From Nautilus pompilius (lineage: Eukaryota > Mollusca > Cephalopoda > Nautilida > Nautilidae): DNA of 64,000 nt. Positions within the stretch are counted from its first letter, which is position 1. Every line of letters starts with the position of its first letter. The stretch spans positions 1,316,501 to 1,380,500 of the forward strand of contig JACATO010002186.1 in the NCBI GenBank assembly GCA_018389105.1, written 5' to 3'. A program made the translations under genes and the position numbers. This document shows, one piece after another, positions 2,401 through 60,066 of this stretch. The notes beneath the pieces are model-generated. The model saw nothing but the letters and a program-made list of their open reading frames with translations. It had not been told where the DNA came from and searched no databases.

Positions 2401-4205
2401 GTCAAACATGCAGGTGATAAGGCCATTAGGTTTAATAGTATTAAGATTTTCAGACATATTTTTGTTAATGATCACATTATCCTCATGATGGTCATGAACC
2501 TGATCTCACAGTATAAATGGTAAGTTAAAAAATGGCTATTTTTAATCACAAGATATACTGATGACCTGACCCCCAATGATTAAAGTTGATGTAATAAGGA
2601 TGAGAATATTTTACTGAAAAAAAAATAGCCAGGAATTGCAATCAGAAGCCAAATTTGCTTAAAAAAAAATTTTAATCATCTGATTAAGAAAAATGTACAT
2701 ATTAAAATATCAGCAATAGGCATAGTAATAAACACAAAAACTATTAGTTGTCAAACATAATCATTCAATGACAAAGGAAATCTTTACATAAGACTTAATA
2801 AATTTAGTGAGATACCAAGATGAGGATTTCTAATGTAATCCATTTAACTAACCAAAAGAAAACATTTTTTTTTTAAGTATCTAAATAGCAAAGAATGACA
2901 TAATTTTATATCAAAATGTATTTAAGCAACACCACAATGTAAATTAGGAGTATCAATCATAACAATGGACTAAACTAGTGAAATAAAGTAAAAATATTTT
3001 ATTAATTTAAAAATTATCATCATTACGATGGTATGAAAAAGGATATATAAACACAGATTTAAATGACTGATTGGTAGTTGCTCAAATGGCCATAACATTT
3101 TTAAAAGATAACTCTGAAATATGTAACTAGAAAAATTTGATCTTACTTGATTGATATGGGGGAGAAGGGCAATACCTATAAATAAACCTCTGTACTAAAA
3201 AGAATTGTTTGCATTTGTGGTGCATGTGTTTATTACAGTAAAGCAATAAACAGGTGCAATGAGTGGGCTAACTTTGTGGGGCTACACTGACTAGGCTAGA
3301 AAATTGTTACCATTCAGCTGAATCAAAGTAAATCAAAATCTTTTAAAAAATAATTCTTTTAATGCATTTATCAATTCCTTTAGCGTGCACCGCCCAAAAC
3401 TGAAATATTTATTTATCATATTAAGAACAAGAGACTTTTAAAGCAATTGGTGGTAACAGAGCTTTTCCAACTAATGCTAACTGGGGATAAATTCTTAAAC
3501 GTTAATACCAGTTTCTAAGAATGATGTGGTTCTCACTAGTTCAAATAAGTACTCAAACATGGTAAAAATGACAGTTTGATACAATTCTTCTGGGTTTTAC
3601 AAGACAGTTCTTAATAGTGTTGTTATAAATTATCAACAATGCAGTATATTAAAAATTGTTTTGGCAATTAAACATAAATCTAAGAAATGCTGCATAAATA
3701 GTGCATTTATACATCTGAAGTAAAACTATAAAAAATGAAAAATATAATTTAGTGGCTTAAATAATAATACTAAAAAGAGAATGTTAGAAATAAGTGTAGT
3801 AATACATAATATATTTTATAGAATGCCTAACAAAATGATGTTTAGAGTGTTTAGTGCACAAACATCATTCAAAGCCCCCCACCCAATTATATACATTTGT
3901 TTCTCAATTCTTTCATTTAATTAAGAATTTAAAATTACATAATTTGAAAATTCTTTTATTTATTCCAAACAAACAATATAACAAACATGAAGCAAATGAA
4001 AATGTAAACAAATAAAACCATCTACTATCCATAAAAAATGGTTGATTTAGAAAATATTTTCATAGTGTAAAACACTTTTCCACCACATCTCAGTATTTGT
4101 TTTCATGGCCCTTTCACCTTTTATAATATGGCATAAAATCACGTAAAGAACAGCCTGTTAAAGAACTTAGCTTTATTCTGAGCCAAAATTCTAAAAAGTA
4201 CCTCT
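2401..4205. other. AT-rich sequence, no gene recognised
   Basis: Long A/T runs and no convincing coding stretch on either strand. A short minus-strand stretch near 3145-3215 has splice-like borders but is too small to support. Confidence 0.5.
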
Positions 4206-44899: not shown

Positions 44900-45224
44900 T
44901 GAGGAATTGATGCAATGTTTGAGGTTATTGAAGAATTAGCTGCAAACAGGATATGAAAGGAACAAGTACAGGCAAAAACACTTTTCTCAATGTATGTGAA
45001 ACAGTAAACTGCTTCAGATTGTATTGGAAAAACCTGAAAAGTATGATTCTATTAAACATGGTAGAAAAGAAATCAGGGCTAACATCAACAAGGAAATTCA
45101 ACAATTAAATGTCAAACTTCCCATGTCACTTCAATGTATCATTCTCCGGCAATCATTGTGCAGTAAAATCATACAGTATGAATCCATTATAAATGTCATT
45201 GTTTCATGTGAGAATTTCATCTTC
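44900..45224 (+). pseudogene. Older hAT (SCAND3/GTF2IRD2-type) transposase, left part
   Basis: Plus-strand relic of a hAT-superfamily transposase of the type domesticated in GTF2IRD2, SCAND3 and FAM200. About 44905-44945 reads IDAMFEVIEELAA, matching GID..F.+.EELA. Then 45110-45224 reads CIILRQSLCSKIIQYESIIN and VSCENFI, matching the conserved HC..HQ.LC.K.L....VM..V...VNFIR segment. It is cut at the target-site duplication of the younger hAT, and homology resumes at 48477. Stops and frame changes are frequent. The outer terminal repeats of this older element were not found. Confidence 0.75.
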
Positions 45225-45232
45225 AGTTAAGG
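45225..45232 (+). repeat. 8-bp target-site duplication, left copy
   Basis: AGTTAAGG, identical to 48469-48476. Eight bases is the diagnostic duplication length for hAT elements. Confidence 0.97.
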
Positions 45233-45268
45233 CAGTGGTTCTCAACATGGGGCATACGCCCCACAGGT

Positions 45269-45318
45269 GGGCAATTCGATTTTAAAGGGGGGCAATTTGA
45301 TTTTCAAGGGGGGCAATT
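45269..45318 (+). repeat. Three 21-bp subterminal repeats of the young hAT
   Basis: GGGCAATT occurs at 45269, 45290 and 45311, each within a G-rich lead and, for the first two, followed by (C/T)GATTTT. The even 21-bp spacing, two DNA turns, is suited to tandem protein binding. Confidence 0.8.
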
Positions 45319-45884
45319 GAGTACGAATGAAGAGGTCTGGGTCCAAATTTTCGATTTTTATTTTTTGGATTTTCCATCAGGTAAAGTTTATGTTTCAGAT
45401 GCTATTTTGAGTAAATATTTTTTTTTTAGTGAAAAAGGTCTTTATTGTATAGTTATTACATAATCAGTGTGCCATCGCTCTTCATGCACGTCACACAAAG
45501 TGCACAAGGTCATGGAAGAACCTTATTTATTGAATTTGATTTAGAAATGCGATTCAAAGGGCTTTTGCTAAGTTACCATTATAATAACTGTTTCCTCAGT
45601 TTTCTCTCAAAGGAGAGCATTTCCATTTTCTGAAAATTCAGAGCTCGTAAACAAAGAAGTTGTTTTGGTGTTTTCACACAAGGTAATTGATACATATTTC
45701 TTTGGTTGCTCATGAATATATTTGATTGTTTAGTATTATGATGATACGAGAAGATACATGTGTCAGAGATGAAAACTTAATAGTCCAAATGCTAATATAA
45801 TACAACTACAACAGTCTTGCCAAATTCATTGTGTATGTGTGTGTGCATATTTATGTCAGACGATTATCGTCAATACATTCGTGT

Positions 45885-45946
45885 GTGATACAAATTTCTC
45901 ACACATTCATAAAATTCTTGTGTCAATACAAATTTCTCACACATTC
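45885..45946 (+). repeat. Direct repeat in hAT leader
   Basis: ACAAATTTCTCACACATTC occurs twice, about 38 bp apart, upstream of the transposase start. Each copy is preceded by related T/G-rich sequence. It lies in the presumed 5' untranslated or promoter region. Confidence 0.75.
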
Positions 45947-46159
45947 GAAAAAATCTGGTGTACCGCACTGTCTGTCCTTATATGCTGTATAAAACGAATC
46001 GGCATTGTTTTATTAATTATGTGTTAACTTCATTTCATTTATGTGTTTACCTGAACGTTCTAATTATTTTATTTCATTTTTGTGTTAACTTAAACATCTT
46101 AAATTCTGAAAGTGCATTTCACTTCTTAAGATTACTCATTTATTTCAGTCACAGCCCCT

Positions 46160-47934
46160 ATGCATAAAATGAGTAGTGCAAGCAAAAAGAAAGTTTGTCA
46201 GTATTCAGAGGAATTTTTGAAATTTGGTTTCATACCCGCTGCTCATGATGAAAGGTCACCTTTCTGGCTCTTATGCCAACAATGCTTGACCAACGAATCA
46301 ATGAAACGAGGTCGTCTTGAGGCGCATTTGAAGGCAAAACATGTTGCGTATGTAAATTCAGATTTGAATTACTTAAAATCTTTAAAGAATAAGTTTGAAA
46401 AAAGATCAACAATAAAGTCTCTGTTCACTGCACAAACTGTTACTATCAGTCGTACTCTTGAGGCAAGTTATGAAATTTCTTTACTCTTTGCTAAATCTGG
46501 AAAAAATCATACTATAGGGGAGGATTTAATTAAACCATCAATATCTGCATTTCTTAAAACAGTTCTGGAAAAAGATGACAAAGATGTTAAAGCCATGCCA
46601 CTCAGTAACAACACTGTTAGGAGAAGAATAGATGAAATGAGTGAAGATATTGAAACACAACTTGTTGAAAAGCTGAAATCAAGAAAATTCTCAGTACAAA
46701 TGGATGAATCAACTGTGAGGCAGTGAGGCCTTATTGCTAACTTATGTAAGATATACTGATAAAGGTGAATTTGTTGATGAAATGTTATTCTGCAAATCTT
46801 TAGATATCACCACTACTGCTGCTGATATATATAATAAACTAAAATACTACTTAGATATCAATAATATACCAATGGAAAACATAACATCTTGTGCAGCTGA
46901 TGGTGCTCCTGTTATGATGGGCAAGAAAAATGGCTGCTTAAAATTGATGAAAGATGAGAATCCAGAGATGCTTCTTGTGCACTGTGTTATTCAAAGGGAG
47001 AACTTATGGTCGAAAAATATTTCTCCTGTACTTAATGAGGTACTGAAATCAGTTATAAAATCTATCAAAGCTATCAAAACTAATGCCAAATGTGAGCGTC
47101 TTTTCGAGAAATTTTGTGAAGATAACAATTCAGACTATGTGAGTCTTTTACTTCACACTGAGGTACGGTGGCTTTCGAAAGGGAATTGTTTGAAAAGATT
47201 CATGGAACTGTTTGATGAACTTAGTGGCTTTCTAAGTGACAAGCCTGAAATGAAGCACCTGCTAACCGTTGATGGAAAAGCGTTTTTGAGTTATTTAGCA
47301 GATATTTTCGAAAAACTGAATGTGTTGAATAAACAACTTCAAGGAACAAATAAAACACTTGTTGATGCAAAGGCGAAGATATTTGGCTTTATTTCATTTA
47401 TCGAGTTATGCCAAAAAAATATTTCTGACAAAAATTTTGACCAATTTCATTGGCTAAAAAAAATGTGAGCCAACTGAGGCTGCTGTGCTTGTCATTGTGG
47501 ATCATCTGAAAATATTGGCCTCTGATTTTAAAGAAAGATTTTCTGATTTAAAACAGATTAATTTTCCATCGTGGGTGATGCAGCCAGTGCTTGTGGATTT
47601 ATCTGATGTTTCAGTGCAGTACCAAGAAGAACTCTCAGAAATAAAAAATGATGAGTCAGTTAAAACTTTATTCAACATAAAAGGAGCGATGGCATGGCTT
47701 TGTGATGAGACAGAAACTAAATACCCAAATTCAACTAGCTTTGCAAGGAAACTGTTGTTACCGTTTCCATCTTCATATTTAGCTGAATGTGGCTTTAGCA
47801 TTGTAAATGATTTGCTACTGAAGAAAAGAAATTCACTGGATATCAGTAAATGAGATTTGAGACTAAAGCTGACTAAATTAGTGCCTAATATAAAATCTCT
47901 TTGCAGCAGGCATGAAGCACAAGAGTCTCACTAA
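46160..47934 (+). pseudogene. hAT transposase (ZBED5-like), nearly intact, three lesions
   Basis: About 590 codons, the usual length for ZBED5-type transposases. Start ATG is 46160 or 46169. A TTTATTTCAG acceptor-like site lies just upstream, so a leader intron is possible. An N-terminal BED zinc finger reads C-x2-C (LLCQQC) with HLKAKH. The RNase H-like core follows: MDEST holds the first acidic residue, CAADGAPVMMGK the second region, and HTEVRWLSKG is the hAT signature. The C-terminal dimerisation segment includes LAECGFSIVND. Lesions: a frame change at about 46721, an extra A in an 8-A run at about 47457-47464, and a TGA at 47851-47853, probably from CGA. The original stop is TAA at 47932-47934. 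Not active as it stands. Confidence 0.92.
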
Positions 47935-48468
47935 CTTTATTCCGCTTTTCTTGAGGTGTGCTCAAATGGCATTTTGCATTTGATAGGAACCTATACTTTA
48001 TTGTACAGTAATTAAAATGAACAAATAAGCTTCCATTCAAATTAGTTTGTGTTCATAGTACATTTCAGTTTTCTATTACATGTTTTGAATTTTTATTTGC
48101 TGTTTTTGTATGAGACAATCCACAAATATTTTCATAAATATAGAAATTTTCTCTCTCTTTATTACCTGTGAATTCTCTCTTATTATCATATGTATCATTA
48201 TTAAAATCTAATACCACTTAATATTTTTTCTTATAATTTTTTCAGTAATTTCTTGCTCAAACTTTAACTGTCTTTTGTTTATTTCATTTTTCATGGATGC
48301 CATGTTCTTTTGAAGCTTGTTTAAACCAAGGTATTGGCGTTTTAAGCTTCTTCAGCTGAAACGGAGTTAACTTTTTAAATGATAAGAATTATATATCACC
48401 ACATGGGGGCATCAGGATTTTAGAGGTGATTAGGTGGGGCATGGCCCAAAAAAGGTTGAGAACCACTG

Positions 48469-48476
48469 AGTTAAGG
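48469..48476 (+). repeat. 8-bp target-site duplication, right copy
   Basis: AGTTAAGG, matching 45225-45232 exactly. Confidence 0.97.
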
Positions 48477-49320
48477 CTTAAATCACCATCAACTACAGCA
48501 GTTCTTTTCTGAGATAGAAGCAAATATGGTGATATTGTGTGTTCTACTTATGTAAGGTAACTCAGCCAGGGAAGGATTTTGAAACTTCTTCTTTTAAAAC
48601 TGTACCATGAAATCAATATTTTTCTTGCAGAAAAAACAAAGCTGAAGTTGAAACTGTCTGAACTTGCATGGATTTTTTATCTTTGCATCTGGATTTTTTG
48701 ACATACATTACAGAGCATATGGATAATCTGAACCTCAAGTTACAGTGGAAAGGAAAGTTTGGGTGAAATGTTGTTGACATTAAAGTTTTTGAGTCAAAAC
48801 TATGGATTTTCATGAAAACGTTTAGAGGAGGCAATTTGTCACACTTCCCAGGTTGAAATTTTCTCTCAAGATGAAAAAAATCAAAATGTATTTTCCAACT
48901 AGTAGTTATTACAGTTGTAATTCCAAATGCTATTTCAAAACTTTCAGAAGAATACCAAGAAAATTAATTTCTTCCAAAATCCATTAAAAAAAATATTTGC
49001 ATGCATCATTTTTAATTAGCAGAATTATAAGTAAAAATGCCCTGAAAGATGTGTACAAAAAAAAAAATTAATTCATCAAGTTTTACTCAAGTCTTCTTCA
49101 AAATATATATATATCTACATTTAAAGTAGTTTGCGATGGCCGTGATTACCATCTTTGGTAATACCTGTTTGTGAACGGACATTTTCAAAAATATCCTGAA
49201 ATCTCATTTATGATCACAACTTAAAGAAAAACATTGCATCAGGTACTGATAATGTGCATGTCAAACATGCAGGCAGATATTAATATCCTGATCAATGGGA
49301 AACAGGCACAATGTTGTCAA
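48477..49320 (+). pseudogene. Older hAT (SCAND3/GTF2IRD2-type) transposase, right part
   Basis: Continuation of the relic at 44900-45224. Immediately after the duplication the sequence encodes LNHHQLQQFFSEIEAKYGDI and then STYVRWLSQGRILK, the family's GLNHR.F..FL.E....YGD..YHTEVRWLSRG..LKR. Later pieces include LSELAW, EHMDNLNLKLQ-like, and GGNLSHFPRLK (about 48830-48855). The C-terminal hAT dimerisation block follows at about 49165-49310 (VCERTFSKIS and MSNMQADINILINGKQ). Multiple stops and frame changes mark it as much older than the element inside it. It probably ends near 49320; no terminal repeat seen. Confidence 0.78.
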
Positions 49321-52126: not shown

Positions 52127-53438
52127 CGAGGTCTGTCGAAAAAGTATCCGACTTTATTTTTTCCCGTGGGAAGTAATGACGTTAGGGAGACAAAAGTGTG
52201 CATAGTGGAGCTGCATGCCTTCATTCGCATGCGTGGTTTTTGGCGGGCTTGCTGAATGCGTCAGTTGCTGACAGGCAGCCAGCGTATGAGGTGCTGTACT
52301 ACTTACTCGTCGCATTTTCATTTCGCCCGTGATGACGGAACGTGTGGAGCAACGATCTTGCAACAAGTTTTGCCAGAAGCCTGGAGATACCCAAGCAGAA
52401 ACAATTTGCAAAATTCAACAGGGTTTTGGTGGCAATGCCATGGGTGTTACCCAAATTAAAGAATCGTACAACAGATTCAAAGATGGCCACACATCGGCAG
52501 AGAGTGACCAGCGTTCCGGGAAGCCATCAACAAGCCGCAATGCAGTTATTATCGAGAAAGTTCGGACCTTGATAATGGAGGATCGTTATTTGATGGTGCG
52601 TGAAATTGGTGAGGAGGTTTGGATCAGTAAAGATTCTGCAAATGCAATTTTAAAGGAGGATTTGGGCTTGCACTGTGCCCAAGCTGTTTTCTCAGGAACA
52701 ACAACAACTTCATCTTGAGGTTGCACAGGACCTGCTGGATACTGCCAACAGGAATCCTGAGTTCCAGAATACCATGATAACTGGAAATGACACGTGGGTG
52801 TATGGGTACGACCCGGAAACTAAAGCTCAGTCATCACAGTGGAAACACCCAACGTCACCAAGGCCCAAAAAAGCACGTCAGGTCCGGAGCAAAAGCAAGG
52901 TGATGTGGACTGTTTTCTTCGGCTACCGAGGTGTTGTGCATCACAAATACACACCAGAAGGACAAATAGTTACAAAGGAGTACTAGCAGGAAGTCCTCCA
53001 ATGTCTTCGTGATGCAGTTCAGCGCAAGAGACCGGATCTGTGGGCCTCACAAAACTGGCAGCAGCATCATGACAATGCCCCGGCTCATTCGTTGCAGTTG
53101 ATTCAAGGTTTCTTGGCAAAAAAAGGCATTTCACTTATTCGCCAGGCTGCCTACTCTCCAGACATGGCTCCTCCTGACTTCTGGTTCCCAAAAATGAAGA
53201 TGCCACTGAAAGGCTCCCGCTTTGAGAGCCGAGAGGACATCATACGGAATGTGACAGTGAAGCTGAGAGCCATTCCGGAAGAAGCATTCCAGACGTGCTT
53301 CGAACAGTGGAAGGATCACTGGGCTAAGTGTGTGGAGGCACAAGGGGCCTACTTCGAAGGGGATTAGCAAATGAACCCCACCAAGTACGTAATCTTTTTT
53401 TCCAAGCCTAAGGTCGGATACCTTTTCGACAGACTTCA
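52127..53438 (+). mobile_element. mariner transposon, nearly full length (1312 bp)
   Basis: Complete element with TA duplications at 52125-52126 and 53439-53440. Terminal inverted repeats are about 26 bp and share GTCTGTCGAAAA and GTATCCGAC with three mismatches. One transposase gene lies on the plus strand. Length is normal for mariner (about 1.3 kb). The GC content is visibly higher than in the surrounding AT-rich DNA, as expected of a fairly recent arrival. Confidence 0.95.
52332..53367 (+). pseudogene. mariner transposase (GVQW/FLJ37770-like, DD34D type), inactivated
   Basis: Start ATG at 52332 (MTERVEQRSCNKFCQK), stop TAG at 53365-53367. The N-terminal paired-like DNA-binding region includes ITQIKE-like VTQIKESYNRFKDG and RSGKPSTSRN, then VREIGEEVWISKDS. 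A small deletion with a frame change near 52672-52690 removes the usual R.SAKFVP stretch. The catalytic region follows: ITGNDTWVYGYDPE, where the first catalytic Asp of the usual TGDE(S/T)W is Asn; HHDNAPAH, second Asp; and YSPDMAPPDFWFPK, third Asp, lacking one residue of the usual DFW-L-FPK. A TAG at 52984-52986 interrupts KEY.QEVL. The C-terminus (WAKCVEAQGAYFEGD) is intact. With a substituted catalytic residue, a stop and a frameshift it cannot be active. Confidence 0.93.
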
Positions 53439-55852: not shown

Positions 55853-58296
55853 CTGATAATAATCTATGGTGTCACAGCAAAATCCAGTAAATATGAATTT
55901 CACAACACTGTTTTATAATATTTTAAATATAAGTAAATTGTCAAAACAACATTTTATTCTTTTAAAATTTACTTTATTTGCAATACCTGGATATATATCA
56001 TTTTATTAAGATGACATACAGCAATGTTAGATTATAGCTAATGTTTTCACAAAATTAGCAAATTAGCATTGCAGTTTATAACACATTGTGAGAATTACTA
56101 TCATGAAAGTATTTAATTTCCTTTTATGCACACAATAATAAGGCATTATAGAAAGAATAAAGACAAATTATAAAAAGTTAAGAGGTTTACTAGAATAATT
56201 AGTGGTACTTTTTTGGTAAAGAAAATGCAGATTTTAACTGGTTTCTTAAACCAGTGAGATACCAAATATTATCAAAGGTCATAAGCATAAATTAAATATC
56301 AGTGCCATTGTTCCGCTTTTTGACAATTACCTGCTTACGAGTAAACCAATACTTGTGGACTATGCAGACCTCACCAAACAGCTAGTAATATAATTCAGTC
56401 TCTTGTTTGGCCTACTATGGGTTCAAATTTGAACCTAATGAAGCATCCTTCTTCATAAAACTGCAGAAATGACCTTGGCATTGCATGCAAGATTATACTA
56501 CAGATATGCATTCAGTGCCTTGTGAGCAGCATATGGTGGTGGTACGATGGTTATACTAAATTAATGATCTTTCTTCTATGACACTGGGACATTTTTTATT
56601 GTAAAATAGTGATGATGCATCTAATACTGTAATTTACAACAACACATTTTTGAATAGCCAGTTTCTAGTTTTTCCATGTCATTTTATAAAATGCTATAAT
56701 ACCAAAAAAGTAAACAAATGTATGTAATCATTTAATATTGATATAAGAAACAATCAAATGAAACGTAGCTGAAAAAAGAATCACCATAATTGAATCTGAC
56801 TAGATTTTGTTTGTATGTCCATAGTACTTTGTCAGACCAGAGAAATTTGAGTCATAAATGTATCTCAGATTATATAGTAGTACTGCAAAGAAATTTGTTT
56901 ATGGAAAATCCAGTGCTATTTAACTTATGTCATAGAATATATATTTTTAATTAAATAAATGCCAAAATCCCTATAATTTATATACATTCAACAAATAATT
57001 TAAAAAGCTTGCATAAGCATAATCCTAATGCAAAGATGTGTTTAGATACAACATGGAGTATATCCATGTTTAGATTTCAAATAAATCTGATGCTGAGCAA
57101 GCAAGTTCAGTTTTATGCCACAATGAAATTGGATCTGTTGTCACAGTGTAAATTACAAATGCAATACTTTGATAGAGTTAAAATTGAAAGAAGCGGTGAG
57201 TACTAGGACAATAGTTCAAATAGGACAAAGATGAAAACTGAATTACACTTCGTAAATTTTTATAAGACTTTCAGACAAAAAAAAAAGGTATCATCCAAAC
57301 CTAAAAAAAAAAAAAAAAGTGTTTTAATGATTAGAGATATCACATTTTGCTGAATGATTAATTTTAAGACATGGTCAATGTAGAACCTATTGTGATGTCA
57401 TATAAACATTTTTCACATTTCACTTACTATGCATACCTGGCAATTCTTCTTCAGTCAAATTAAGTCTAATTCTTACTAGTTTCAATAAATTTTGCACTTG
57501 CCCTACCCTAAAGTCTCATAAGCTATCCAACAAAGTGACAAAGTTCAAGTACCAATCTTGCTAAAATTTTGGATATTATTTCTACAGAAAACCACAACAA
57601 AACATCTGGAAATTAGTCATAAATATTAATTATTTCACACCCATTTATATGCACAATATACAAATGGAAACTACATGCCAAATGTTAGATGATCACTGAA
57701 AAAAGCAACTCCCCTCACTTTCCATCAAAAGATGGACAGCAAAAGGTCTATCCCTACAGTTTAAGTACTAACCAGTGTAAGTTACTGTAGTTTTCAAACT
57801 TATTTTAATTCAGGCTTTCATTTTGAAATTATATAATTTATTCATATCAATCTAGGTAAAAAAAAATAGGGAATTAAGTGGTTTCCTGCTCAAATCTTTC
57901 ACTCAGATGAACAGGTGTATTTACTGATCCTTTTGAAAATATTTGATTTGAATCAAGTGCAACATTTATTTGCATGCATTGGTGTCCGCAGGACAGATTA
58001 CAGGGGGGGCTTATAAAATATCATCAAGTGCAGGGAATGCACCTAGTGATGAAAAGCATACTAGCATCAAAAAATAAAAAGATACTAATTTGTTTTCTTT
58101 TTCTAATCAAAGGTATTTCATTTACAAATTTCTTGTGATCATTTAAAATTTTTTTTAATTTATTTTTTAAATGTTAGTATGTTTCCTTCACTATCATGCT
58201 AACTAACCCATCAGAGTTCTCAATAATGAAACAAGACAGACAAAGCAGACAGCTGGCTTAGCTATTCTAATGCATGCATGCTCTGGCAGTGTCTTA
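55853..58296. other. AT-rich sequence, no gene recognised
   Basis: A plus-strand open stretch (57009-57206) ends at a donor-like GTGAGT at 57195 and has an acceptor-like GTTTAG near 57070, but its product is unrecognised. 56290-56560 is somewhat less AT-rich without an assignable family. Confidence 0.45.
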
Positions 58297-58935
58297 CAGT
58301 TGTCCCTCGGTATTCGCGGGGGTTACGTTCCTAGAGCACCCACAAAGAGTGAAAAACCGCGAATATTGGACGTGGCCCATAAAAATGCCTATAAATGTCA
58401 AAATATAACGTAAAATATAATAAAAAATATATAACAACAATTTAATAAAAAATATATAATAACAATTTAATAAAAAATACAACACTCAGTGAAACACTCA
58501 GAGAAACATTCGAGATAGCTACACATGGTAAACTGGGATGATGGAGGGCTGCTGGGCTGCATCTTCCTGAGACAGCGCCTCATGGGCAGCAGCCAATCAG
58601 CAGCAAGGAGAAATGAATAACGCTCTGGGATTGGCTACTTTCAAACCTCCAGCCAATAGCGTTTATTTTATATTGATATTTTGCTGAATTTATGTTTAGT
58701 ATTTGAATTACAAAATTAGTAAATTATATTGTTATTAATAATTTAGCGTTAAAAAGCATGAAAAAATATATATTGCCACAAAAAAACCATAAAAAAAATC
58801 GCAGAAGATATTTGCGATTCCGCGAATATGTGGGGCTTTCCACAAACAATTATTAGTTAGGTTCTAAGGAAAATTCCGCGAATAACTGGGGCCGCGAATG
58901 CCGAACTGCGATTATGCAGGGGGGGGGGTCGACTG
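58297..58935. mobile_element. Tigger/pogo-like MITE (639 bp)
   Basis: Starts CAGTTGTCCCTCGGTATTCG and ends so that the opposite strand reads CAGTCGACCCCCCC, then a second CATTCGCGG and TATTCGCGG. It is flanked by TA at 58295-58296 and 58936-58937. The ends match Tigger-type termini (CAGT.GTCCCTCGGTATTCGCGG). CpG-containing CGCGAAT motifs recur near both ends. No transposase is encoded, so it depended on an autonomous relative. The interior includes a short GC-richer block at 58540-58660 holding three CCAAT boxes. Confidence 0.88.
58593..58657. promoter_or_regulatory. Cluster of three CCAAT boxes inside the MITE
   Basis: CCAAT at 58593-58597 (plus), ATTGG at 58630-58634 (minus) and CCAAT at 58653-58657 (plus), each in an NF-Y-like context (AGCCAATCAG, GATTGGCT, AGCCAATAG). 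Probably left over from the promoter of the parent transposon. Any effect on a host gene is unproven. Confidence 0.5.
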
Positions 58936-58937
58936 TA

Positions 58938-59449
58938 TATTGTATTTTCCTATACTGCTGCTCTGGCCCTGACCTTTGGCCACACACCATCAGACTCTGT
59001 TCCTCCTTGTGGATAGTCCTGTCTATATGATTACAAAATTATTTTAGAAAACAGTGCTACATATTGAATAAAGTCTCATTTATACTCATGAACAATTTTT
59101 TTTTCTAAGTGGCTGCAGGCAGAGAGGCCTTATTTCCAAAAATGCTCTCAAAAAATTGTTTTTTTTCTTTGCATTTTCATATATAAATACAGTGAAACAC
59201 AGTTATCAGTAGACTTTGTAATTAAGAGTAAAATTGTTTAAATGGATTTTCATAAATATAAAACTTTTTTAACAAACTGAAACAAATTTACCCAATCAGT
59301 TTTTTAAAAAAGTTGTCTTAGTTTGGCTTTCAGCTTTATCAGCTGTGATTTAAGACTAATACCAAATGTTATATATACTTACACAAACTTATGGCACATA
59401 TTTAATGATAATTAATTTTGTAATATATATTTAATATATGGGTTTGCAG
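58938..59449. other. AT-rich sequence, nothing recognised
   Basis: The first 100 bp is less AT-rich (CTGCTGCTCTGGCCCTGACC). The rest is plain. Confidence 0.5.
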
Positions 59450-59516
59450 ATACTGTCAATGTTCAGCTGCAAATGTGTCTCCAACACATCTGAATCCAGT
59501 GAATACACCACTTCAG
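59450..59516 (+). other. Candidate 67-bp exon, plus strand
   Basis: Acceptor-like GGGTTTGCAG, 67 bp of mixed composition, then a consensus donor CAG|GTGAGT. Two frames are open throughout. One reads YCQCSAANVSPTHLNP and has no low-complexity character. The island stands out clearly from AT-rich flanks. It is the best splice-site pair in the window, but no protein family is recognised and 67 bp is short. Confidence 0.35.
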
Positions 59517-60066
59517 GTGAGTTCTACACCTATGAGAAAGAAGAAATATCCCTTTAAGTATGTCAAGACACATATCATCTGTATTGTAGGTGTTCCAGGC
59601 ACATCATTTCTCAGTTATTTGCTGATCTAATCATTATGATTACTTAGTTTGTGCAACAATAGGATGGACACTATTATCACAGACACATGGAACTAAATGC
59701 ACACCATTATAATACCTGCATATTTTATAGAATTTTCTATTATTTTTAAGCATGACTATCTAATAAATAACATTTTTTTCTTGTATGTTTAAACGTGAAT
59801 AAATTACTTTCATAACTGTCAGAAAATTAATTGCTTAAAATTCTTAAGTGGATGGTTGCTTATAATAATAACCTGCTACACTTATTATTTCCTTTATCAT
59901 TATTCCATTGAATCCTAAAGGAAATTTTTCTACTGTACATTAAAACAACTTCCCTGACAAGAATGTAGGTGGCACTGCATTGCTTCAGTTCTCAATTGCT
60001 AAAATAGCAGTACTACTAGAAATTTCCCTGTCCTGTCCCCTGGGTTTAGAAGTTGGACCTGACAGC
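59517..60066. other. AT-rich sequence, nothing recognised
   Basis: No coding or structural pattern that I can support. Confidence 0.5.

What the first reader, a model, noticed from the sequence alone, without database searches (positions are those of the whole stretch)
45225..48476. Young, almost intact hAT with perfect ends and only three coding lesions
Directly visible: perfect 8-bp duplication AGTTAAGG, 14-bp perfect terminal repeats, BED finger, MDEST, RWLSKG and C-terminal dimerisation blocks in one gene with two frame changes and one TGA. One frame change is a single extra A in an A-run and the TGA looks like CGA to TGA decay. Few lesions mean recent activity, so working siblings may exist elsewhere in this genome.
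Basis: partly seen in the sequence, partly recalled or inferred. Interest (0 to 1): 0.7.

Follow-up and report, generated by a model that had tools for sequence, protein, structure and literature searches.

The report
Decayed hAT transposon in CpG-poor DNA
This is a typical dead copy of a fairly young cut-and-paste jumping gene, and comparing it with sister copies suggests that the DNA around each landing site, not the jumping gene itself, sets how fast its CpG sites mutate, probably through local DNA methylation.

Summary
In detail: 8-bp duplication, 14-bp perfect terminal repeats, a transposase gene broken by two frame changes and a TGA. It is a hAT element with Buster-type target sites (36 of 37 perfect duplications carry TA in the middle). 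The genome holds a large family (217 matches to one catalytic stretch). In 55 aligned copies the tree is star-like, mean distance to the column majority is 1.2%, decay is close to neutral and this copy's lesions are mostly not shared. So the burst was fairly recent, but the window copy is average, not 'almost intact': 3 lesions is the commonest count and it also lost the CxxH His. One of 55 copies has an unbroken frame.

New: CpG decay of each copy follows CpG depletion of its flanks (52 insertions, Spearman -0.76; non-CpG changes do not). CpG-derived stops, including this TGA, occur 8 times in 25 copies with CpG-poor flanks, 0 in 27 others; total lesion load does not differ. Best reading: germline methylation is set by the neighbourhood and extends over the inserted transposon. 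Methylation itself was not measured. The hAT is ordinary.

The parts
45225..45232 (.). 5' target site duplication AGTTAAGG
   Evidence: identical 8 bp at both ends; TA at positions 4-5 as in 36 of 37 perfect TSDs of the family
45233..45246 (+). 5' terminal inverted repeat CAGTGGTTCTCAAC
   Evidence: 96 places in the genome within 2 mismatches of the first 29 bases
46160..46726 (+). transposase, first frame piece (BED-type finger to MDEST)
   Evidence: ORF 46130-46726; family frame of 593 codons with the stop, from ATG 46160
46274..46342 (+). BED-type zinc finger motif (CxxC...HxxxxH), by eye
   Evidence: translation; motif recalled; no Pfam BED hit
46700..46714 (+). MDEST block, presumed first catalytic Asp
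   Evidence: assignment to DDE recalled
46719..47468 (+). transposase, middle frame piece
   Evidence: 249 aa, the best listed matches elsewhere in the genome are 90-97% identical
46825..46832 (+). (AT)4 microsatellite inside the gene, a frameshift hot spot
   Evidence: 17 of 55 copies longer (20 fetched loci were chosen because their match begins at aa 31-40, close to this place); 2 of 38 in the first, DNA-selected set are longer; about 40 of about 150 listed protein matches begin at aa 31-47 (counted by eye)
46893..46907 (+). AADGA, presumed second catalytic Asp
   Evidence: 217 genomic matches to the stretch around it within 3 mismatches; assignment recalled
46983..46994 (+). CxxH motif, His lost in this copy
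   Evidence: His lost in 2 of 55 copies, by different changes; CxxH reported to matter in Hermes and Kat1 (PMC4763223, passages)
47166..47171 (+). RW motif
   Evidence: translation; motif recalled
47456..47463 (+). A-run carrying a 1-base frame change
47458..47853 (+). transposase, C-terminal frame piece ending at TGA 47851-47853
   Evidence: Dimer_Tnp_hAT E 0.025, below cut-off
47782..47799 (+). AECGFS in the dimerisation region, presumed catalytic Glu
   Evidence: translation; assignment recalled
47851..47853 (+). premature TGA at a CpG codon
   Evidence: also in 4 of 39 other copies, all five carriers in CpG-poor flanks
48455..48468 (+). 3' terminal inverted repeat GTTGAGAACCACTG
   Evidence: 238 places within 2 mismatches of the last 27 bases
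48469..48476 (.). 3' target site duplication AGTTAAGG

Best explanation
The feature is one inactive copy of a hAT cut-and-paste DNA transposon with Buster-type target choice. Shown: a family with about two hundred matches to its catalytic stretch is spread in this genome; the aligned copies form a star and decayed close to neutrally after landing; a 171-193 bp deletion derivative with the same ends also spread. Inferred: an intact source copy made the transposase, which cut elements out at their terminal repeats and pasted them at nnnTAnnn sites, duplicating 8 bp. Shown: CpG loss in each copy follows the CpG depletion of the DNA it landed in. Inferred: germline CpG methylation is laid down by neighbourhood and extends over the newly landed 3.2 kb, so copies in methylated domains, such as this window, collect CpG-type stops.
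For: Ends and TSD; paralogous empty sites for this insertion and for L018, L021 and L053; 37 of 52 insertions with perfect TSD, 36 of 37 with TA in the middle against 10% TA in flanks; star tree, 92% of branch length terminal; singleton changes N:S:stop 377:105:17 of 499, close to the neutral expectation 70:25:5%; MITEs sharing one deletion junction, 4 of 4 read with perfect TSDs, 28 by the junction pattern. CpG: rho -0.76, n=52, jackknife -0.75 to -0.79; controls not significant: non-CpG C>T -0.13, GpC 0.05, A>G 0.13, non-CpG transversions -0.07; left and right flank each predict it (-0.73, -0.71) and it survives correction for GC and age (-0.71); CpG stops 8 in 25 low-o/e copies against 0 in 27, p 0.004, other stops 20 against 26.
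Against: No Pfam hAT or BED model was shown to pass its cut-off; an unrelated model (Cation_ATPase, 7 of 11 pieces, best E 0.025) scores about as well as Dimer_Tnp_hAT; no PDB sequence match; the only fold tried was useless (pLDDT 41.7). Methylation was not measured, and no methyltransferase gene was looked for. The 55 copies are not a random sample. CpG transversions also correlate weakly (rho -0.29, p 0.04). Even in the CpG-rich third of flanks CpG changes exceed other changes (ratio 2.7). Total lesion load does not differ between CpG-poor and CpG-rich flanks (medians 3 and 3, p 0.80). Singletons have slightly more N and fewer stops than expected (chi-square about 7 by hand).
Confidence: 0.8

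Rival explanations
1. The transposon itself attracts methylation, which then spreads outward and depletes CpG in the flanks.
For: PMC8857917 (passages) reports transposons as specific targets of methylation in cnidarians, with the youngest most methylated.
Against: Flanks at o/e 0.04-0.2 are far more depleted than the window copy (0.45) or the family majority (0.63), so they were probably depleted before the insertion; 28 of 32 two-kb bins of the window are at 0.25 or lower; copies of the same family in CpG-rich flanks show little CpG decay.
Confidence: 0.12
2. An old dead family whose copies all descend from an already broken source moved by another element.
For: 54 of 55 copies are broken; some lesions recur in several copies (stop at 47464 in 6, frame change at 47642 in 5); frame-broken L065 is the copy closest to the majority.
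Against: 133 frame changes fall at 90 distinct positions; AT-expanded copies share no linked variant beyond what 1161 tests give by chance (best p 0.0018); one unbroken frame exists; low divergence.
Confidence: 0.07
3. Part of the frame damage, in this copy the A-run change and the 2-base change in a GA repeat, is assembly error rather than biology.
For: Both lie in short simple repeats; the assembly holds near-duplicate stretches.
Against: The TGA and the CxxH missense are substitutions; frame changes occur at 90 distinct positions.
Confidence: 0.15
4. Flank CpG content and element CpG decay are linked only through insertion age or base composition.
For: Flank GC correlates with decay (rho -0.40).
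Against: Non-CpG divergence, the age measure, does not correlate with flank o/e (-0.03); partial rho given GC and age is -0.71, while GC drops to -0.14.
Confidence: 0.05

Closest known systems
Buster group of the hAT superfamily (for example Mar of Drosophila willistoni)
   Same: 8-bp TSD with nnnTAnnn consensus, short TIRs, length under 4 kb, MITEs made by internal deletion (PMC3517528, passages)
   Different: Transposase phylogeny not tested here; the TSDs also often show T at position 2 (26 of 37) and A at 7 (28 of 37), which I recall as the Ac-type pattern
ZBED5/Buster1 and other domesticated Buster genes
   Same: BED finger plus hAT layout (PMC3606216, passages)
   Different: Here a mobile, multi-copy, near-neutrally decaying element, not a conserved single gene
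Mosaic methylation of invertebrate genomes
   Same: Methylation concentrated in some domains; transposon methylation depends strongly on location (PMC8857917, passages; PMC11292947, passages)
   Different: Those studies measured methylation; here the record is mutational, in near-identical copies, and points to neighbourhood rather than transposon-specific targeting

Membership tests
hAT superfamily | 8-bp target site duplication | tested here: met
   37 of 52 insertions perfect, 11 with 1-2 mismatches, 4 with 3 or more
hAT superfamily | short terminal inverted repeats, element about 2.5-5 kb | tested here: met
   14-bp TIR, 3236 bp; ranges from PMC3942097 passages
hAT superfamily | hAT transposase domains (catalytic region, dimerisation region) | tested here: inconclusive
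   DUF659 in 2 of 11 pieces (best E 0.0003), Dimer_Tnp_hAT in 4 of 11 (best E 0.022); Dimer_Tnp_hAT below cut-off for the window piece; no PDB sequence match
hAT superfamily | DDE triad, CxxH and RW motifs | tested here: inconclusive
   seen by eye in translations; no structural check, fold failed
Buster group | TSD consensus nnnTAnnn | tested here: met
   36 of 37 perfect TSDs; consensus from PMC3517528 passages
Buster group | transposase falls in the Buster clade | not tested
   no reference transposases were aligned
Intact, active transposon | unbroken transposase frame | tested here: not met
   window copy has two frame changes, a TGA and loss of the CxxH His
Mosaic germline CpG methylation | CpG-specific transition excess tied to CpG-depleted domains | tested here: met
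Mosaic germline CpG methylation | 5-methylcytosine present | not testable with these tools
   needs bisulfite or nanopore data

The most novel reading that the evidence does not exclude
In this genome, methylation of a DNA transposon is decided by where it lands: near-identical copies are either swallowed by a methylated domain along their full 3.2 kb and lose CpGs about ten times faster than other sites, or stay nearly unmethylated. Methylated domains thereby add CpG-to-stop changes to the transposase (though total lesion load is not measurably higher), and a young transposon family becomes a ready-made reporter of the germline methylome from an assembly alone.
Probability: 0.5. Interest if true: 0.6.

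Novelty: new member of a known kind. Interest (0 to 1): 0.4.

Why it matters
The element itself is ordinary. Its value is as a natural experiment: near-identical sequences dropped at many places show whether methylation in a mosaic animal genome targets transposons or follows the neighbourhood, a point on which published invertebrate studies differ (PMC8857917 and PMC11292947, passages). The test needs only an assembly and can be repeated on any young repeat family.

Tried and rejected
Shared-lesion or dead-source model: disfavoured. A subfamily behind the protein matches that start near aa 37: in the fetched copies mostly length change of an (AT)n run, with no linked variants beyond chance. 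Viral relatives: none confirmed (4 pattern hits). PDB by sequence: none. Fold of the middle piece alone: pLDDT 41.7, not used, no fold search made. Host identification by telomere repeat: one short TTAGG array, not conclusive. Empty-allele tests for 19 further insertions (14, 16, 11 in both): only L018, L021 and L053 gave uninterrupted hits, all in high-copy repeats and taken as paralogs; the 40 scored places per search were filled by these, so the rest is inconclusive. Dating in years: not attempted, host and mutation rate unknown; same-insertion pairs (elements 1.2%, 0.67% and 0.13% apart) were not used as a clock because a 2.5 kb stretch shared by two such contigs is about 100% identical. 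Literature searches for the CpG-by-neighbourhood result: (listings; two papers seen as passages); I do not claim it is unpublished. A paper search for microsatellite frameshifts in hAT genes found nothing; one search gave nothing useful.

Full report
What is there. The window copy spans 45233-48468 (3236 bp) between perfect duplications AGTTAAGG, with 14-bp perfect terminal repeats. A transposase gene runs from ATG 46160 to a stop at 47932-47934; the family frame has 593 codons with the stop. In this copy it is broken by a 2-base change near 46718, a 1-base change in an A-run at 47456 and TGA at 47851. It also lost the His of the CxxH motif by a private change; the His is lost in 2 of 55 copies. 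That motif is reported as needed for hairpin formation in Kat1 and for catalysis in Hermes (PMC4763223, passages). The copy sits inside an older repeat; 38 relatives of the target, 63-73% identical, were listed and many run through the joined site.

The family. The own genome (727.6 Mb, 2558 contigs) gave 359 candidates of which 40 were scored; besides the window copy, the main matches are 93-97% identical. There are 217 matches to a conserved catalytic stretch within 3 mismatches, 96 to the 5' end and 238 to the 3' end within 2 mismatches. I fetched 59 further copies; 55 including the window copy had both ends found. Twenty of the fetched loci were chosen because their protein match began at aa 31-40, and the others for similarity to the window copy, so the sample is not random.

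Age and decay. Mean substitution distance to the column majority is 1.17%, mean pairwise 2.23%; 92% of tree length is terminal. Singleton changes are close to neutral expectation: N 75.6%, S 21.0%, stop 3.4% observed against 70.3, 24.7 and 5.0%, a small excess of N; shared variants are N 61.4%, S 31.2%, stop 7.4%. Lesions per insertion: 0 in 1, 1 in 7, 2 in 10, 3 in 15, more in 19 of 52. The window copy, with 3, is typical. By non-CpG distance it is at 0.72%, rank 15 of 55. Of its lesions the 2-base change is in 0 of 39 others (3 of 39 have other losses there), the A-run change in 1 of 39, the TGA in 4 of 39. Across copies 133 frame changes fall at 90 positions and 54 stops are seen; some recur, for example a stop at 47464 in 6 copies and a frame change at 47642 in 5. 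A microsatellite inside the gene, (AT)4 at 46825-46832, is the commonest frameshift site: 17 of 55 copies carry a longer repeat, up to 14 uninterrupted units, with no linked variants beyond chance; in the first, DNA-selected set only 2 of 38 are longer.

Target choice and non-autonomous copies. Of 52 insertions, 37 have perfect TSDs and 36 of these have TA in the middle; T at position 2 in 26 and A at 7 in 28 of 37. TA in the middle is the Buster consensus (PMC3517528, passages). Four short elements of 171-193 bp consist of element positions 1-116 (three of them shorter by about 20 bp of a tandem repeat) and 3159-3236 joined at the same junction, each with a perfect TSD; the junction pattern occurs 28 times in the genome. 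Having no gene, they were presumably moved by transposase made elsewhere.

CpG decay follows the neighbourhood. Outside the element the window has CpG observed/expected 0.18; the element has 0.45 and the family majority 0.63. Across 52 insertions the fraction of CpG positions changed by transition correlates with flank CpG observed/expected at -0.76 (p 5e-11; flanks 800-1093 bp, o/e 0.04-1.56). It is CpG-specific: non-CpG C>T -0.13, GpC control 0.05, A>G 0.13, non-CpG transversions -0.07, none significant; CpG transversions -0.29, p 0.04. Age does not explain it: non-CpG divergence against flank -0.03. Left and right flanks, adjacent before the insertion, agree (0.84) and each predicts decay (-0.73, -0.71); given GC and age the partial value is -0.71. 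The two sets of copies give the same value (-0.76 and -0.76, window copy in both). From the CpG-poorest to the CpG-richest third of flanks, the ratio of CpG to non-CpG change is 10.4, 8.0 and 2.7. CpG-derived stops: 8 in 25 copies with flank o/e under 0.4, 0 in 27 above (p 0.004); other stops 20 and 26, frameshifts 56 and 72, total lesions median 3 and 3 (p 0.80). All five TGA carriers at 47851 lie in CpG-poor flanks (hypergeometric 0.02). In CpG-poor flanks the decay covers the whole element, highest in the first 320 bp and at 1280-1600, with no simple gradient from the ends.

Interpretation. A hAT element of Buster type by its target sites burst in this genome fairly recently and its copies are now decaying. 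The CpG pattern is best read as germline methylation set by the neighbourhood and extended over the inserted DNA. Published work on cnidarians reports transposons as specific targets, with strong effects of location (PMC8857917, passages), and work on annelids calls the link between methylation and transposons species-specific in most invertebrates (PMC11292947, passages). The present result leans to location for this genome. Methylation was not measured.

Limits. Pfam and PDB support for hAT is weak; membership rests mainly on ends, TSD and motifs seen by eye. Insertion polymorphism could not be settled.

Noticed in passing
window 52290-52718 (+): Open frame resembling the N-terminal part of a mariner-type transposase (resemblance recalled; Pfam HTH_48 E 0.11, below cut-off); the 2-kb bin around it has CpG o/e 0.62 in an otherwise CpG-poor window, as expected of another recent insertion.
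   Followed up: partly
window 58001-60000: Another CpG o/e spike (0.47) in a CpG-depleted window; not examined.
   Followed up: no
L074:122-345 (own genome C2314:1700122-1700345): Repeat matching 38 further listed places (besides the twin contig C2019) at 96-100% identity, mostly 99-100%, with internal inverted pieces: probably a very young short mobile element.
   Followed up: no
L053/L065, L017/L022, L044/L045: Same insertions found twice: contigs C2314 and C2019, with matching copies about 463 kb apart on both and about 100% identity in a tested 2.5 kb; C2022 and C953; and twice on C2008 (flanks). Haplotigs or duplications in the assembly.
   Followed up: partly
   Followed up: no
window 44961-45232 and 48477-48741: The insertion lies in an older repeat with 38 other listed matches at 63-73% identity.
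   Followed up: partly
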